Below are positions 5,029 to 53,593 of a stretch of 64,000 nucleotides of DNA, piece by piece (positions within the stretch are counted from its first letter, which is position 1; each line of letters opens with the position of its first letter). The translations under genes were made by a program, and so were the position numbers. This DNA comes from Corallococcus carmarthensis (GTDB taxonomy: Bacteria; Myxococcota; Myxococcia; Myxococcales; Myxococcaceae), in assembly GCF_003611695.1 (NCBI RefSeq), contig NZ_RAWE01000003.1, positions 62,001 through 126,000 of the forward strand, written 5' to 3'. The notes beneath the pieces were generated by a model that saw only the letters and a program-made list of their open reading frames with translations, ran no database searches and had not been told where the DNA came from.

Positions 5029-6063
5029 ATGAAGCGATGTGGAAGGACGCAGTTCAGCTGGGCGTGCGGAATGTTGGCGCTAGGCATTGCCGGCTGTGGA
5101 GCCCCGGAGGACGCGGTTGAGCCCGGTGAGGGCGTGACCTGGGGAACGTCCCGTGCGGCCCTCACCGTGTACGAACAGGCCGCGCAGGACACGGCCAACG
5201 AGGCGGCGAGCTGCAAGCCGCTCGGGAACTTCTACTGGGAGATTGGCGACGGGGCGGGCCGGATCTACGGCCTGTCGCGGGGCAGCGGCGTGTCGGCCAC
5301 GACGGTGATGCCCATCGCGTCCGCGAGCAAGTGGCTGTACGTGGGGGCCTACGTGCAGTCCAAGGGGTACGCGAACCTCACCCCGGATGAGAAGAAGCGG
5401 CTCAACTTCACCAGCGGCTACATCGAAGAGAACACCACCCTGTGTGGCGCCGCCGGGACGACCGTCTCCGCGTGCTACGGGACTTCCTTCAAGGACGTCA
5501 CCTACCGCCCGCTCCAGAACGGCCGGTTCTTCTACAACGGCGGGCACATGCAGAAGCTGGCCCTGGACGACATCGGCGCGAGGAAGGGCACGGGCCTCGT
5601 CAGCGTCATGGACTGGCTCAATCCCTTGCTGGGCACCACCTTCCCGGAGTCCGACAGCGACGTCGCCGTGGCGGGAGGGTTCTCCGGCAGCGCGGTCCAG
5701 TACCGCGTCTTCCTGATGAAGCTGCTCAACAACCAGGTGGCGCTGGCCTCCAAGCTGACCGTGGACTCCGTTCCCGCCTGGCCGGGAGGACCCAACGTGG
5801 CCTACACGCCGTGGAGTGCCGCGGGCGAGGCGTACTACGGGCTCGGGCACTGGATTGAAGGAGAGCCCGTCAACGGCACCTGGACCGTCACGGGCCACTC
5901 GTCGGCGGGGGCCTTCGGCTTCTATCCCTGGGTGAACGCCGCCAGGACCCGGTACATGGTCCTGGCCCGCAGCCGTCAGCTCGGCGAGGAGGAAGGCGAG
6001 AAGTCACGCGCCTGCGCCCAGACCGTCCGCAAGGCGTACGAGACGGGCGTGGCGCAGCCCTGA
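5029..6063 (+). CDS. lipid-anchored serine hydrolase, beta-lactamase/PBP-like
   Basis: This is a 344-residue lipoprotein. The signal sequence ends in LGIAGC with Cys23 as the lipidation site. Ser98-Ala-Ser-Lys101 (MPIASASKWLYVGAY) fits the SxxK motif of penicillin-binding proteins and class C-type serine hydrolases. HSSAGAFGFYPW near the C-terminus lies where the KTG/HxG box normally is, and RFFYNGGHMQKLA may supply the YxN element. The substrate is unknown. ATG 5029 is supported by CTGGAGGAAGG upstream; the longer frame would bury the signal peptide. It lies 98 bp after the C39 peptidase in the same direction and is convergent with the esterase. Confidence 0.7.
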   Translation: MKRCGRTQFSWACGMLALGIAGCGAPEDAVEPGEGVTWGTSRAALTVYEQAAQDTANEAASCKPLGNFYWEIGDGAGRIYGLSRGSGVSATTVMPIASASKWLYVGAYVQSKGYANLTPDEKKRLNFTSGYIEENTTLCGAAGTTVSACYGTSFKDVTYRPLQNGRFFYNGGHMQKLALDDIGARKGTGLVSVMDWLNPLLGTTFPESDSDVAVAGGFSGSAVQYRVFLMKLLNNQVALASKLTVDSVPAWPGGPNVAYTPWSAAGEAYYGLGHWIEGEPVNGTWTVTGHSSAGAFGFYPWVNAARTRYMVLARSRQLGEEEGEKSRACAQTVRKAYETGVAQP

Positions 6064-48973: not shown

Positions 48974-49753
48974 GTGGACCTGAGAATCGCCTCGTACAAC
49001 ATCCTGGCGGACGCCTACATCAAACCCGAGTGGTTCCCGCACACTCCCGCGGACCTGCTCCAGCCGCGAAGCCGCCACGCGTTGCTGGCCTGGCGCATCG
49101 TGGGGCTGGACGCGGACATCGTCTGCCTTCAGGAGGTGGAGCCCGACAGCTTCGCCGCGCTCCAGGAGGCGCTGGCGCCGCGCGGGTACGCGGGGGTGAT
49201 GGCCCAGAAGCAGCAAGGCCGCCCCGATGGCTGCGCGGTGTTCCACCGCCTGGAGCGGAGTCCGGGCCACCGGATCCATTACTTCAGCGACCGGCTGGAG
49301 GACGGGCGCGTCTCCGGGCATCTGGCGCTGGTCGTGGACTTCGACGTCGGCGGGGACCGGCTGCGCGTGGCCTGCACGCACCTGCGCTGGGACCGGCCCG
49401 ACAGGCCGGTGGCGCAACACCAGGGCATGCAGCAGGCCACCGAGCTGATTGACGAACTGATCCGAAGGGATCCAGAGGCCCTGTGGATCGTCTGCGGCGA
49501 CTTCAACGCCCGGCCCGGGGAGCCGCTGGTCCAGGCGTTCGAAGCAGCCGGGCTGCGCGATGCCTACGCCGGGCGGCACCAGCCGACCTGCAACGCGAAC
49601 GGCTCGCCCAAGGCCATCGACTTCCTCTTCCACTCAAGCGCTCTGCGAGCCCAGCCAGACCCGCTGCCAGTGGTGGAAGCCCAGACGCCGCTGCCCTCGG
49701 AGCAGGAGCCGTCCGATCACCTGCCGATCGCCGCACGCCTGCTGCGCGATTGA
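48974..49753 (+). CDS. endonuclease/exonuclease/phosphatase family protein, CCR4-like
   Basis: This is a 259-residue protein. MDLRIASYNILADAYI, IVCLQEVEPDSF, ACTHLRWD, WIVCGDFNARPGEPL and PSDHLPIAARL supply all the EEP metal and catalytic positions. The NILAD and QEVEPD wording recalls CCR4-type nucleases/deadenylases, though bacterial relatives have varied substrates. There is no signal peptide. It begins at GTG 48974 behind GAGGAAAGG. A strong bidirectional hairpin ends the unit. Confidence 0.85.
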   Translation: MDLRIASYNILADAYIKPEWFPHTPADLLQPRSRHALLAWRIVGLDADIVCLQEVEPDSFAALQEALAPRGYAGVMAQKQQGRPDGCAVFHRLERSPGHRIHYFSDRLEDGRVSGHLALVVDFDVGGDRLRVACTHLRWDRPDRPVAQHQGMQQATELIDELIRRDPEALWIVCGDFNARPGEPLVQAFEAAGLRDAYAGRHQPTCNANGSPKAIDFLFHSSALRAQPDPLPVVEAQTPLPSEQEPSDHLPIAARLLRD

Positions 49754-49777
49754 GCCGTTGCTCCTGAAGCACGCGGA

Positions 49778-49811
49778 AGGGCCCCCTGGAGATACACCGC
49801 CAGGGGGCCCT
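49778..49811. terminator. 12-bp perfect stem, bidirectional terminator
   Basis: AGGGCCCCCTGG (49778-49789) pairs with CCAGGGGGCCCT (49800-49811) over a 10-nt loop, between the convergent EEP and M23 genes. TCTTC follows on the plus strand. Confidence 0.7.
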
Positions 49812-49836
49812 CTTCAGGGCACCGGGTGCCGCGTCT

Positions 49837-51066
49837 TCAGTTCATCGACCAGGGCATCTGCAGCCCCGCGCGGTTGGCGCACGTGCTGGCCGCCGGCCAT
49901 TCCTCGAACTGGATGGCCACCGTCGGGTACGCGGTGCTTGGCCAGAAGTTGGCCCAGGGCACGGTGCTGGCGGAACACCCCTGCCCCGTGGAGCCGCACT
50001 CGCACGTGGGGGCGCCGGGATGCACGCCGCTCACCTCGAAGTGCAGGTGGTTGGCGCTGGACCATCCGGTGTTGCCCGCGGTGGCCAGCTGCTGCCCCCG
50101 GACCACACTCCCACCGCACGTCACCCCCGCGGCGAGCGAACCGCCCTTGAGATGCAGGTAGGTGGAATGGGTGCCATCCCCATGGTCGATGACCATGAAG
50201 TTGGCCTGGTTCACGCAGGCATTGGAGTTACAGCCGGACACGCTGTTCATCTTGAGGTGCGTCACGATCCCGCCCCGCGCGGCGACCACCGGGAAGGTCA
50301 CGTTGCCCGCCATGGCGAAGTCCCACGCGTACTTGTCCACGCCGACGTGGTCGTTGCAGCAGGAGTCATTGCAGTCCTGCGTCAGGATCAGGGCGTTGGC
50401 GCGCGGCCAGGGCAGCCGGTAGCCCTGCCCTCCCTGCACCCCCGCGCAGTAGTCCGCCGTCCCCGCCGGGGCCACCACGCAGCCATTGGGGCATGCCTGT
50501 GACGACGTGGGTGCCTGATTGGCGCCCGGGCATTGATACAGCGTCGAGGCCACGGCGTTGGACATGCTGTCGTTGCCACAATAGGCCCCGGCCTGGCTTC
50601 CCAGACACAGCGGGCTGCCCGTCGTACCGCCCGTCGAGCTGCAAGCAACGCCCGTGGACGTCCAGCCTCCCGTGCCGCAGGTGTAGAACTTCTTGTCGCC
50701 GCCGCACACGCGGAAGCCGCACTCGGTGATGTTGGGGTCGATGGCGCGCCCCTGGTCATCCGAGCCTCCCGAGCAGCGGCACTGACCGGCGCCACAGGTC
50801 GAGCCAGGCACCGAAACCCAGCCGGTCGAGGTGCACTCGAAGTTGACGTTCCCGACGCCACAGACGCGGAAGCCGCAGTAGGTGGCGCTCACGGGAATGG
50901 GGGTCCCATTGTGGTACTGGCCGCTGGCGCAGGCGCAGGTCGCGGCCTGCTCCACCCGCGAGACGTCCTCCACACCGGAGGCTTCGTCCAGGTCCGCCCC
51001 ACTGCACGCGGTCAGCCCCAGCACCCCCAGGGCAAGCAACGTCTGACGGAAGAAATGGCTGTTCAT
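49837..51066 (-). CDS. M23 peptidoglycan endopeptidase lipoprotein with Cys-rich modules
   Basis: This is a 409-residue lipoprotein (VLGLTAC, Cys21). Two copies of a Cys-rich module (A) cover about 44-142 (CACASGQYHNG, CGFRVCG, then a second CGFRVCG). One module B is at about 154-207 (YCGND, LYQC, CPNGC, APAG). An M23 LytM-type domain spans about 230-400: HVGVDKYAWDF (His240, Asp249), AARGGIVTH, TYLHL and HLHFEV (His340, His342). It likely cuts peptidoglycan cross-bridges outside the cell. It lies 13 bp after the lysozyme-like gene, with which it shares both modules, and is probably in the same operon. Confidence 0.85.
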   Translation of the reverse strand: MNSHFFRQTLLALGVLGLTACSGADLDEASGVEDVSRVEQAATCACASGQYHNGTPIPVSATYCGFRVCGVGNVNFECTSTGWVSVPGSTCGAGQCRCSGGSDDQGRAIDPNITECGFRVCGGDKKFYTCGTGGWTSTGVACSSTGGTTGSPLCLGSQAGAYCGNDSMSNAVASTLYQCPGANQAPTSSQACPNGCVVAPAGTADYCAGVQGGQGYRLPWPRANALILTQDCNDSCCNDHVGVDKYAWDFAMAGNVTFPVVAARGGIVTHLKMNSVSGCNSNACVNQANFMVIDHGDGTHSTYLHLKGGSLAAGVTCGGSVVRGQQLATAGNTGWSSANHLHFEVSGVHPGAPTCECGSTGQGCSASTVPWANFWPSTAYPTVAIQFEEWPAASTCANRAGLQMPWSMN

Positions 51067-51079
51067 GTTCGTGTCTCTC

Positions 51080-52303
51080 TCAGTTCATCCGGCAGGAGGA
51101 GCCCGCGACCGCGGACCAGGAGGTTCCCATGCACTCGTAGAAGGTGTTGCCGCCGCCGCACACCTCCATGTGGCACGACGTGTCGGCCGCGTTGATGACG
51201 GTGCCATTGACGTGCGCGCCGCTCGCGCAAGAACACGCGCCGCCACACGCCACGTTCGTGTTCACCCACTGGTTGCCCGTCCCGCACTCATAAAGCTTGT
51301 TGTCCGAGCCGCAGGTCCGGAAGCCGCAGTACGTAAGGGATTGGGGAATGAGGTTGCCATTCTTGTAGCGGCCGTTGGCGCACGAGCACGTCTTCGGCGC
51401 GCTGCTCCCGGAGAGGCACGAGTCCGCCTGGCCCGCGGGCGCGCGGTTGCAACCATTGGCACACACCTGCTTCACGACCGGGACGCCCCCCTTGCACACG
51501 TAGAGGAAGTTCGAGTCCCCAGGCACGCCATTGTTCCCGCAGAACAGGCCGCCCTCGGGGCTGCAGGTCGTGCCAGCAGGCGGCGGCGGGGTGGTGCCGT
51601 ACCAGTAGCTCTCTCCGTACAGGTTGAGCATGGCGCGGGTTCCGCTGTCGTACTCTGCCTTGACGGTGACCCACCTGGCGGAGCCCCACGCCGCGCCGTT
51701 ATAGGTGTTGGCAAGGAATCCGAGCCAGAGGTCCCAGCCGGCGCCCCCCACGCGGATGCCGTTGATCCAGTTGTACATGTCCTGCTTCGTGGAGAAGGCG
51801 GGCGTGTAGCCGGAGTTCCAGGCCCCATCGAGCACGAACTGCACCGCGGTCGTCATGTTCCCCTGGACCGTCAGGATGGTGTTTCCATAGAGCGCCAGTG
51901 TCTGGGGATAGGTGAAGTAGTCGAACTGGAACATCCCCAGGCCCCCCTCTTGGGAGCCATCGCAATAGTCATCCCAGTAGCCGGCCAGGACGGGCCCATT
52001 GCACTCCGGGGAGTACGGGCCGGGACACTCGTAGGGAGCATGCTCGCCGTAACAGTGGGCCATCCCCGTCTCGGTGTTGGCGATGCCCGCCCAGAGCAGG
52101 GGGTTGTCGACCCGCGGATCCGCCGCCAGCACGGCCTTGATGAGGTCCGAGCGCTGGCGCATGACGGTCGCGGACACCTGCGACTGTGATTGCTCCGCCA
52201 GCACTGCGTCCGTCTCGGATTCATCATCCATGGGCTGGCAGGCGCCCAACCCGAGGGCCAGGGTGACCAGGGCCCATTGACGGACCCGATGTTCGGCTTT
52301 CAT
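51080..52303 (-). CDS. lysozyme/transglycosylase-like lipoprotein with Cys-rich modules
   Basis: This is a 407-residue lipoprotein (LALGLGAC). The domain at about 45-240 looks like a lysozyme or lytic-transglycosylase fold: WAGIANTETGMAHC offers a catalytic Glu, GGLGMFQFDY resembles the GLxQ motif, and WLGFLANTYNG follows. Then come one B module (about 265-315) and two A modules (about 325-407: CSCANGRYKNG, CGFRTCG and CSCASGAHVNG, MEVCGGG). It probably cuts glycan strands while the M23 partner cuts peptides. The assignment of the catalytic fold is moderate. The direct-repeat element lies about 90 bp upstream. Confidence 0.7.
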   Translation of the reverse strand: MKAEHRVRQWALVTLALGLGACQPMDDESETDAVLAEQSQSQVSATVMRQRSDLIKAVLAADPRVDNPLLWAGIANTETGMAHCYGEHAPYECPGPYSPECNGPVLAGYWDDYCDGSQEGGLGMFQFDYFTYPQTLALYGNTILTVQGNMTTAVQFVLDGAWNSGYTPAFSTKQDMYNWINGIRVGGAGWDLWLGFLANTYNGAAWGSARWVTVKAEYDSGTRAMLNLYGESYWYGTTPPPPAGTTCSPEGGLFCGNNGVPGDSNFLYVCKGGVPVVKQVCANGCNRAPAGQADSCLSGSSAPKTCSCANGRYKNGNLIPQSLTYCGFRTCGSDNKLYECGTGNQWVNTNVACGGACSCASGAHVNGTVINAADTSCHMEVCGGGNTFYECMGTSWSAVAGSSCRMN

Positions 52304-52388
52304 GCGTCTCCTATCGGGCGGGACTCGCCCCCCCAGGGGTCGTGCATCGACCTTGGGGCGGGAGTGTCAGCGCACTCGTCGGAGGCGT

Positions 52389-52409
52389 GGGATTAACTCG
52401 AATTAAATC
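52389..52409 (-). promoter_or_regulatory. direct-repeat element upstream of the lysozyme/M23 operon
   Basis: On the minus strand, TTAATTC and TTAATCC lie with a 10-bp period about 90-105 bp before ATG 52303. The block agrees at 16 of 21 positions with 3503-3523, in the same orientation. A CTCGA/TCGAG dyad (52397-52412) overlaps it. Confidence 0.45.
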
Positions 52410-52453
52410 GAGGGCTTTGGCTCTAGCGCGAGGAATGAGGCGGCAGGGCCAAA

Positions 52454-52481
52454 GCGAGCAGGGCCTGTCTCCCCTGCTCGC
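52454..52481. other. strong hairpin upstream of the alcohol dehydrogenase
   Basis: GCGAGCAGGG (52454-52463) pairs with CCCTGCTCGC (52472-52481) over 8 nt. It lies 77 bp before the dehydrogenase start and could be a leader structure or a terminator for antisense reads. The rest of the 255-bp gap holds the direct-repeat element. Confidence 0.4.
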
Positions 52482-52558
52482 CCTGCGGCCTGGCGTCCTC
52501 CCGCACTCCACGTGCGCCCGCACCGCGTCGTCCCCATCCCTCCCTCCGAGGAGATGCC

Positions 52559-53575
52559 ATGGCCAGGAAGATGAAGGCGGTGCAGGTGCCGAAGGCGGGA
52601 GGCCCGCTTGAGATTGTCGAGCGAGAGGTCCCCGAGCCCGGGCCGGGGCAGGTCCGGCTCGCGGTGGAGGCGTGTGGCGTCTGCCACAGCGATGCCATCA
52701 CCAAGGAAGGCTGGATGCCCATCCAGTATCCCCGTGTACCGGGCCACGAGGTGGTGGGCCGCATCGACCGGGTGGGGCCCGGCGTGACGGCGTGGAAGGA
52801 AGGACAGCATGTCGGCGTGGGCTGGCACGGAGGCCATTGCGGCCAGTGTGTCGCGTGCCGCAGCGGCGACTTCGTCACCTGCGAGAAGCAACAGGTGTGC
52901 GGCATCAGCTACGACGGTGGCTATGCGGAGTACCTGGTCGCGCCCCAGGAGGCGCTGGCCCGCATCCCGGAGGGGATGAGCTCCGAGGATGCCGCTCCCC
53001 TGCTCTGCGCGGGCGTCACCACCTACAACTCCCTGCGCAACATGGGGGCGCGGCCGGGTGACCTGGTGGCGGTGCAAGGCATTGGCGGGCTGGGCCACCT
53101 GGCCATCCAATACTCCCGCATGTTCGGCTACCGCACCGTCGCCATCTCGCGCGGAGCGGACAAGAAGCCACTGGCGCTCGAACTGGGCGCGCACGAATAC
53201 ATCGACACGGAGAAGGGCTCTCCGGCCGAGGCCCTCCAGAAGCTTGGCGGCGCGCGCGTCATCATGATGACCGCCTCGAGCAGCAGCCTCGCGGGCGAGC
53301 TGATCGGGGGCCTGGGGCGCAACGGCACCCTGCTGCTGCTGGGCGCGGGCTCGGAACCCATCCCCGTCAGCAGCCTGTCCATGATTTCAAAGCGTACGCG
53401 CATCCAGGGCTGGCCCAGCGGCGTGCCCCAGGACTCGCAGGAGGCCATGGCCTTCAGCGCGCTCGCGGGCGTGCGCTCGCGCAACGAGGTCTTCCCCCTG
53501 GACCGCGCGGCGGAGGCCTACGCGCGGATGATGAGCAACAAGGCCCGCTTCCGGGTGGTGCTCAAGATGCGCTGA
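52559..53575 (+). CDS. zinc-dependent alcohol dehydrogenase
   Basis: This is a 338-residue medium-chain dehydrogenase. Catalytic zinc ligands are Cys42 (GVCHSD), His63 with Glu64 (GHE) and Cys150. Structural zinc ligands are Cys94, Cys97, Cys100 and Cys108. GIGGLGH (174-180) binds NAD(P). All residues needed for activity are present; it probably oxidises or reduces alcohols/aldehydes. GGAG lies before the start (TCCGAGGAGATGCC). There is no partner gene nearby; a hairpin and the direct-repeat element precede it on the other strand. Confidence 0.9.
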   Translation: MARKMKAVQVPKAGGPLEIVEREVPEPGPGQVRLAVEACGVCHSDAITKEGWMPIQYPRVPGHEVVGRIDRVGPGVTAWKEGQHVGVGWHGGHCGQCVACRSGDFVTCEKQQVCGISYDGGYAEYLVAPQEALARIPEGMSSEDAAPLLCAGVTTYNSLRNMGARPGDLVAVQGIGGLGHLAIQYSRMFGYRTVAISRGADKKPLALELGAHEYIDTEKGSPAEALQKLGGARVIMMTASSSSLAGELIGGLGRNGTLLLLGAGSEPIPVSSLSMISKRTRIQGWPSGVPQDSQEAMAFSALAGVRSRNEVFPLDRAAEAYARMMSNKARFRVVLKMR

Positions 53576-53593
53576 GGCGTCGCGCGAGCAGGG

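What the first reader, a model, noticed from the sequence alone, without database searches (positions are those of the whole stretch)
49837..52303. Lysozyme-like and M23 enzymes sharing swapped Cys-rich modules
Both lipoproteins carry two module types: A (CxC, nG, CGFRxCG, C) in two copies and B (YCGN, LYxC, CxNGC, APAG) in one copy. The modules lie before the catalytic domain in the M23 protein and after it in the lysozyme-like one, so they have been shuffled as independent units. They may be wall- or prey-binding modules that are not yet described.
Basis: partly seen in the sequence, partly recalled or inferred. Interest (0 to 1): 0.62.

Follow-up and report, generated by a model that had tools for sequence, protein, structure and literature searches.

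The report
Undescribed cysteine-rich modules on wall-cutting enzymes
Two neighbouring myxobacterial genes encode a probable glycan-cutting and a probable peptide-cutting cell-wall enzyme that carry the same two small cysteine-rich modules in opposite order, and one of these modules recurs, up to 15 times per protein, on many other wall-degrading enzymes of the phylum, so it is probably a cell-wall-binding domain not yet in the databases.

Summary
Two ORFs, 13 nt apart on the minus strand, encode lipoproteins with the order catalytic-B-A-A (51080-52303) and A-A-B-M23 (49837-51066). The catalytic part of the first has no Pfam hit, but its AlphaFold model (pLDDT 93) matches lytic transglycosylases and goose lysozymes (MltF, Z 11.3). 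Modules A and B match nothing in Pfam, NCBIfam, PHROGs or the PDB by sequence. Both are real mobile modules. B occurs in 21 of 195 Myxococcota genomes and an Elusimicrobia MAG, in 1-15 copies, joined to M23, CHAP, Amidase_2, SLT and GH25 domains. By my grouping, 10 of 19 B architectures carry a wall-hydrolase domain, against at most a few of 90 control neighbours. A occurs separately with S1-Kelch, RCC1, M23 and glycosidase-like proteins. A and B meet only in this cassette. B is under the strongest purifying selection in both proteins (dN/dS 0.04-0.14). A and B look distantly homologous. B's predicted fold weakly resembles eukaryotic CBM14 chitin-binding domains, but CBM14 membership fails. 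The cassette is patchy and sits at different sites in two genera. Most likely B, and less surely A, are wall-targeting modules of lytic enzymes. Binding is inferred, not shown.

The parts
51080..52303 (-). Gene 1: lysozyme/lytic-transglycosylase-like lipoprotein, 407 aa (catalytic-B-A-A)
51596..52177 (-). Lysozyme-superfamily catalytic domain (residues 43-236); invariant Glu78, motif GGLGMFQ (120-126)
   Evidence: AF2 pLDDT 92.7; VIA Z 11.3 to MltF, 9.6 to goose-type lysozyme; Glu invariant in 10 homologues
51416..51565 (-). Module B of gene 1 (residues 247-296)
51245..51391 (-). Module A1 of gene 1 (residues 305-353)
51092..51238 (-). Module A2 of gene 1 (residues 356-404)
52238..52255 (-). 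Lipobox LGLGAC of gene 1
   Evidence: sequence
49837..51066 (-). Gene 2: M23 lipoprotein, 409 aa (A-A-B-M23)
50794..50940 (-). Module A1 of gene 2 (residues 43-91)
50641..50784 (-). Module A2 of gene 2 (residues 95-142)
50446..50607 (-). Module B of gene 2 (residues 154-207)
50002..50427 (-). M23 peptidase domain, with HVGVDKYAWD (240-249) and HLH (340-342)
   Evidence: Pfam PF01551, 53.1 bits against cut-off 28.7; motif positions
51004..51021 (-). Lipobox LGLTAC of gene 2
   Evidence: sequence
52397..52412 (.). AT-rich palindrome CTCGAATTAAATCGAG upstream of gene 1, at the upstream edge of the cassette; candidate regulatory site
   Evidence: single occurrence in the window; same element at the upstream edge of the G122 and G133 copies; function inferred
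49828..52413 (.). Two-gene cassette whose DNA similarity to copies in another genus starts and stops here

Best explanation
The two genes are a co-transcribed cassette for two exported lipoproteins that attack both bonds of peptidoglycan: gene 1 the glycan strands (lysozyme or lytic transglycosylase type) and gene 2 the peptide cross-links (M23 type). Modules A and B are small disulphide-rich accessory domains, not part of either active site. B works as a cell-wall-binding module that holds the enzyme on peptidoglycan or a linked wall glycan; A probably adds a second adhesive contact on the cell surface or matrix. Shown: the two genes, modules, order, predicted catalytic fold, independent recombination, and purifying selection. 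Inferred: co-transcription, export, catalytic activity, wall binding, and that the target is prey or rival walls rather than the cell's own.
For: B recurs on enzymes of several unrelated wall-hydrolase folds: M23 (window, L131), CHAP (L106, L126, L128), Amidase_2 with SLT (L103/L104) or alone (L129, L130), GH25 (L119, L125). By my grouping of orthologues, 10 of 19 B architectures have a recognisable wall-hydrolase domain, against at most one member per such family in 90 neighbouring control ORFs; Fisher p 4e-6 even if 5 controls are granted. B runs in tandem, up to 15 copies, before or after the catalytic domain. dN/dS of B is 0.04-0.14, below the catalytic domains (0.23-0.61) and A (0.10-0.43). 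Catalytic model Z 11.3 to MltF. Patchy presence in 2 of 16 genomes of the genus fits an accessory, not housekeeping, function.
Against: No binding data. Several B proteins have no recognised wall-hydrolase domain (phosphodiester glycosidase L105, C39-like L107, unknown domains in L109-L113, L120-L123). A sits on S1-Kelch, RCC1 and glycosidase-like proteins, so its ligand may not be peptidoglycan. A structural or protective role for small disulphide-rich domains is not excluded. The M23 gene is deleted in G117 while gene 1 remains, so the pair is not strictly needed together.
Confidence: 0.62

Rival explanations
1. The modules are general extracellular adhesion or glycan-binding units of myxobacteria (matrix, polysaccharide or chitin of fungal prey), tied to wall hydrolases only because these are common among exported lipoproteins.
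For: A sits on S1-Kelch, RCC1 and glycosidase-like proteins; some B proteins lack a wall hydrolase; B's model weakly resembles CBM14 chitin-binding domains.
Against: B's enrichment on wall hydrolases of several unrelated folds is strong against neighbouring controls, though those controls were not limited to exported proteins.
Confidence: 0.22
2. The modules are disulphide-stabilised pro-domains or spacers that keep the enzymes latent or protease-resistant until they meet prey, without binding a ligand.
For: N-terminal A-A-B in the M23 protein could act as a pro-region; latency by other domains is known for M23 enzymes (PMC9662197).
Against: The same modules are C-terminal in the lysozyme-like protein and in most B proteins, and B forms arrays of up to 15, which fits a binder better than an inhibitor.
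Confidence: 0.1
3. The cassette remodels the producer's own wall (for example in sporulation or development), and the modules bind its own peptidoglycan.
For: Both have lipoboxes and could stay in the periplasm.
Against: Present in only 2 of 16 genomes of the genus and at varying sites, unlike a core developmental function.
Confidence: 0.2

Closest known systems
Lysozyme superfamily, lytic transglycosylases MltF/MltE/SLT70 and goose-type lysozyme
   Same: Predicted fold of gene 1's catalytic domain (Z 11.3 MltF, 9.6 goose type), conserved Glu and GLGMFQ motif
   Different: No Pfam match up to E 1; extra conserved Cys; accessory B-A-A tail
M23 peptidases with accessory wall-binding domains (lysostaphin, zoocin A)
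   Same: M23 domain over the Pfam cut-off; accessory wall-binding domain logic (SH3b in lysostaphin, TRD in zoocin A; PMC9662197)
   Different: Modules A-A-B show no sequence match to SH3b or other listed domains and precede the catalytic domain
CBM14 / peritrophin-A chitin-binding domain (tachycitin type)
   Same: Similar length and a comparable G-L-Y ... Y-x-C-x-x-G ... C-x-x-G pattern; structural matches of module B include Der p 23 (Z 3.8), chitotriosidase (3.6) and Aplysia EHEP (3.2); profile score beaten by 1 of 300 Cys-fixed shuffles
   Different: PF01607 does not detect B; hhalign probability only 10; no conserved Trp; CBM14 reported only from eukaryotes (PMC5459812)
Fungal bubble-protein-type antifungal PAFC (6TRM)
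   Same: Best single structural match to B's model, Z 4.6, rmsd 1.6 over 46 residues
   Different: Four disulphides (PMC7865535); a free fungal miniprotein, not a module of wall hydrolases; no sequence-level link found

Membership tests
Lysozyme superfamily (SLT/goose type) for gene 1 | Lysozyme fold | tested here: met
   AF2 pLDDT 92.7; Z 11.3 over 133 residues, rmsd 3.0, to MltF; Foldseek E only 0.19
Lysozyme superfamily (SLT/goose type) for gene 1 | Catalytic Glu and GLMQ-like motif | tested here: met
   Glu78 and GGLGM-Q columns invariant in 10 homologues; catalytic role inferred from the family
Pfam SLT family PF01464 for gene 1 | Match to the Pfam SLT profile | tested here: not met
   No Pfam family up to E 1
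Peptidase M23 for gene 2 | Pfam PF01551 over its cut-off | tested here: met
   53.1 bits against 28.7
Peptidase M23 for gene 2 | Zinc-binding H...D and HxH motifs | tested here: met
   HVGVDKYAWD at 240-249 and HLH at 340-342, read by eye
Lipoproteins | N-terminal signal with lipobox Cys | tested here: met
   LGLGAC and LGLTAC, read by eye; lipidation itself not tested
CBM14 (PF01607) for module B | Match to the Pfam profile | tested here: not met
   PF01607 run on 16 genomes with B genes; no coding-strand match at any B locus
CBM14 (PF01607) for module B | CBM14 fold | tested here: inconclusive
   Model pLDDT about 70 in B; Z 3.2-3.8 to three CBM14 structures, all under 5
CBM14 (PF01607) for module B | Chitin-binding Trp of the hevein motif | tested here: not met
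   No conserved Trp among 80 B copies; importance of Trp465 in chitotriosidase from PMC5459812
Known wall-binding domains (LysM, SH3b, SPOR, PG_binding) for A and B | Pfam match | tested here: not met
   No such match in P0001 or P0002 up to E 1, nor in 21 module rows up to E 10
Cell-wall-binding domain, functionally | Binds sacculi or cells | not testable with these tools
   needs purified modules

The most novel reading that the evidence does not exclude
Module B is a bacterial peptidoglycan-binding counterpart of the CBM14/tachycitin chitin-binding fold, reported so far only from eukaryotes, and with its distant relative A forms a superfamily of disulphide-rich glycan-binding modules that predatory bacteria shuffle among wall-lytic enzymes.
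Probability: 0.18. Interest if true: 0.66.

Novelty: new variant of a known kind. Interest (0 to 1): 0.47.

Why it matters
Myxobacteria kill and digest other microbes, but how their lytic enzymes find the target wall is poorly known. A small module repeated on many wall hydrolases would give a handle to find further lysins by profile and, if it binds, a disulphide-stable targeting domain. The catalytic domain of gene 1 is also a probable wall-hydrolase family missed by Pfam.

Tried and rejected
Known domains for A or B: Pfam, NCBIfam, PHROGs and PDB sequences gave none. Viral origin: no B in viral contigs, phages or plasmids; A could not be scanned there because no stretch was conserved enough. 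CBM14 membership: rejected by profile, though a weak structural resemblance stays. Recent horizontal transfer: the cassette's 83% DNA identity between genera equals that of ordinary shared genes (83-85%), so transfer is not shown; differing sites also fit rearrangement and loss. Module tree to tell how A-A and B were shuffled: too few columns, deep forks unresolved. A mixed alignment of B-A-A with A-A fragments misaligned A to B, so the A modules of the model rest on five close rows. M15-like and CHAP-like readings of L111-L114 by eye were not confirmed. Module model against PDB by Foldseek: no match under E 0.7; no match for A above Z 3.

Full report
Observation. The two ORFs stand exactly where stated, both on the minus strand, 13 nt apart, gene 1 (51080-52303) upstream of gene 2 (49837-51066). 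Each starts with a signal and lipobox. Gene 1 reads catalytic-B-A-A, gene 2 reads A-A-B-M23. In the own genome no further copies of A or B were found.

Catalytic domains. Gene 2 carries an M23 peptidase domain well over the Pfam cut-off. Gene 1 has no Pfam, NCBIfam or PDB sequence match. Its catalytic part has homologues in 10 of 195 Myxococcota genomes, own genome included, where in five it is joined to other tails: propeller repeats, other Cys-rich repeats, or unassigned tails. Its AlphaFold model has pLDDT 92.7. Foldseek alone was weak (best E 0.19), but the second look by VIA-align gives Z 11.3 to MltF, with MltC, MltE, SLT70 and goose-type lysozymes also listed. The Glu of the motif NTETG and GGLGM-Q are invariant. 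I take it as a lysozyme or lytic transglycosylase; which of the two is not decided.

The modules are real and independent. Profiles find B in 20 of 145 genomes of the order and 21 of 195 of the phylum, and in an Elusimicrobia MAG and deltaproteobacterial and myxobacterial MAGs. A occurs in 23 of 145 genomes of the order. B is found alone or in arrays of 2 to 15 copies; A in singles, pairs or triples. Outside this cassette no protein carried both. B has six conserved cysteines in the pattern C, GLYCG, LYxC, CxxGC and DxC; A has CxC, C, CG, C, W and C.

Partners. B sits with M23, CHAP, Amidase_2, SLT and GH25 domains, and also with a phosphodiester glycosidase, a C39-like peptidase and several unassigned domains. 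After merging orthologues by my own judgement, 10 of 19 B architectures hold a wall-hydrolase domain (nine by Pfam, one of them, L128, just below the cut-off; gene 1 by fold). In 90 neighbouring ORFs no wall-hydrolase family was listed, which allows at most one member for each such family. Granting five, Fisher's test gives 4e-6; with none, 2e-9. The controls were neighbours, not exported proteins, so the true contrast is smaller. A's partners are wider: M23 (an independent case in L137/L138), an S1-like domain (read by eye) with Kelch repeats, RCC1 repeats, glycosidase-like proteins (by eye) and small lipoproteins.

Selection. Against orthologues in three or four genomes, B has dN/dS 0.04-0.14 in both proteins, A-A 0.10-0.43, and the catalytic domains 0.23-0.61. 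The modules are kept by selection, B more strictly than the enzymes. The regions are short, so single values are rough.

A, B and CBM14. Profile comparison of A and B scores above all 300 shuffles that keep the cysteine columns, in both directions (hhalign probability 35-54), so they are probably distant relatives. B against a small CBM14 alignment, read from PDB entries, scores above 299 of 300 shuffles, but with probability only 10. The module model is of middling quality (mean pLDDT 75; the other four models 54-57). Its B part matches PAFC (Z 4.6), Der p 23 (3.8), chitotriosidase CBM14 (3.6) and Aplysia EHEP (3.2, two entries). These Z values are low, yet four of the five best are CBM14 domains. 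PF01607 does not detect B and the chitin-binding Trp is missing. B works perhaps like a CBM14, but it is not filed as one.

The cassette. DNA similarity to copies in G122 and G133, of another genus, covers 49828-52413 and stops there; their flanks match neither the window nor each other. In G117 gene 1 stands with a remnant of gene 2 that keeps its start and last codons. In G011, G001 and G003, of the own genus, the gene at 48974-49753 is followed within about 20 nt by the gene at 53591, an empty site. Within the genus 2 of 16 genomes carry the cassette. Identity to the other genus, 83%, equals that of ordinary genes, so recent transfer is not shown. A palindrome marks the upstream edge of the copies.

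Mechanism. Best supported: an exported lipoprotein pair that cuts both bond types of peptidoglycan, held on the wall by B and perhaps A. Predicted fold, modules, order, recombination and selection are shown; activity, export, binding and target are inferred. The patchy distribution favours use against other cells over own-wall upkeep, as inference only.

Noticed in passing
L159:1225-2430 (G155): The same lysozyme-like catalytic domain carries two copies of a different Cys-rich repeat (CGxVxYQGYCNGTTVVWC...), a further unlisted module.
   Followed up: no
L114:2128-5385 (G041): A lipoprotein with 15 tandem B modules and a C-terminal domain that looks CHAP or NlpC-like by eye but has no Pfam match; the same domain follows two B copies in L124.
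   Followed up: partly
L111, L112, L113 (G034): Three paralogues with one or two B modules after an unassigned domain with an HIH motif, M15-like by eye; Pfam and PDB sequence searches found nothing.
   Followed up: partly
window 52397-52412: AT-rich palindrome CTCGAATTAAATCGAG about 95 nt upstream of gene 1, found at the same edge of other cassette copies; possible operator or element end.
   Followed up: partly
window 49753-53591: Insertion hot spot: three relatives lack both the cassette and the alcohol dehydrogenase gene (52559-53575) between the two flanking genes; the dehydrogenase lies elsewhere in them.
   Followed up: partly
L116 near 5082-5157 (G117): Remnant of the M23 gene after an internal deletion that joins its start to its last codons.
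   Followed up: yes
L105:2810-4327: B modules outside Myxococcota: an Elusimicrobia MAG protein with a phosphodiester glycosidase (NAGPA) domain and two B copies; MAG contamination not excluded.
   Followed up: no
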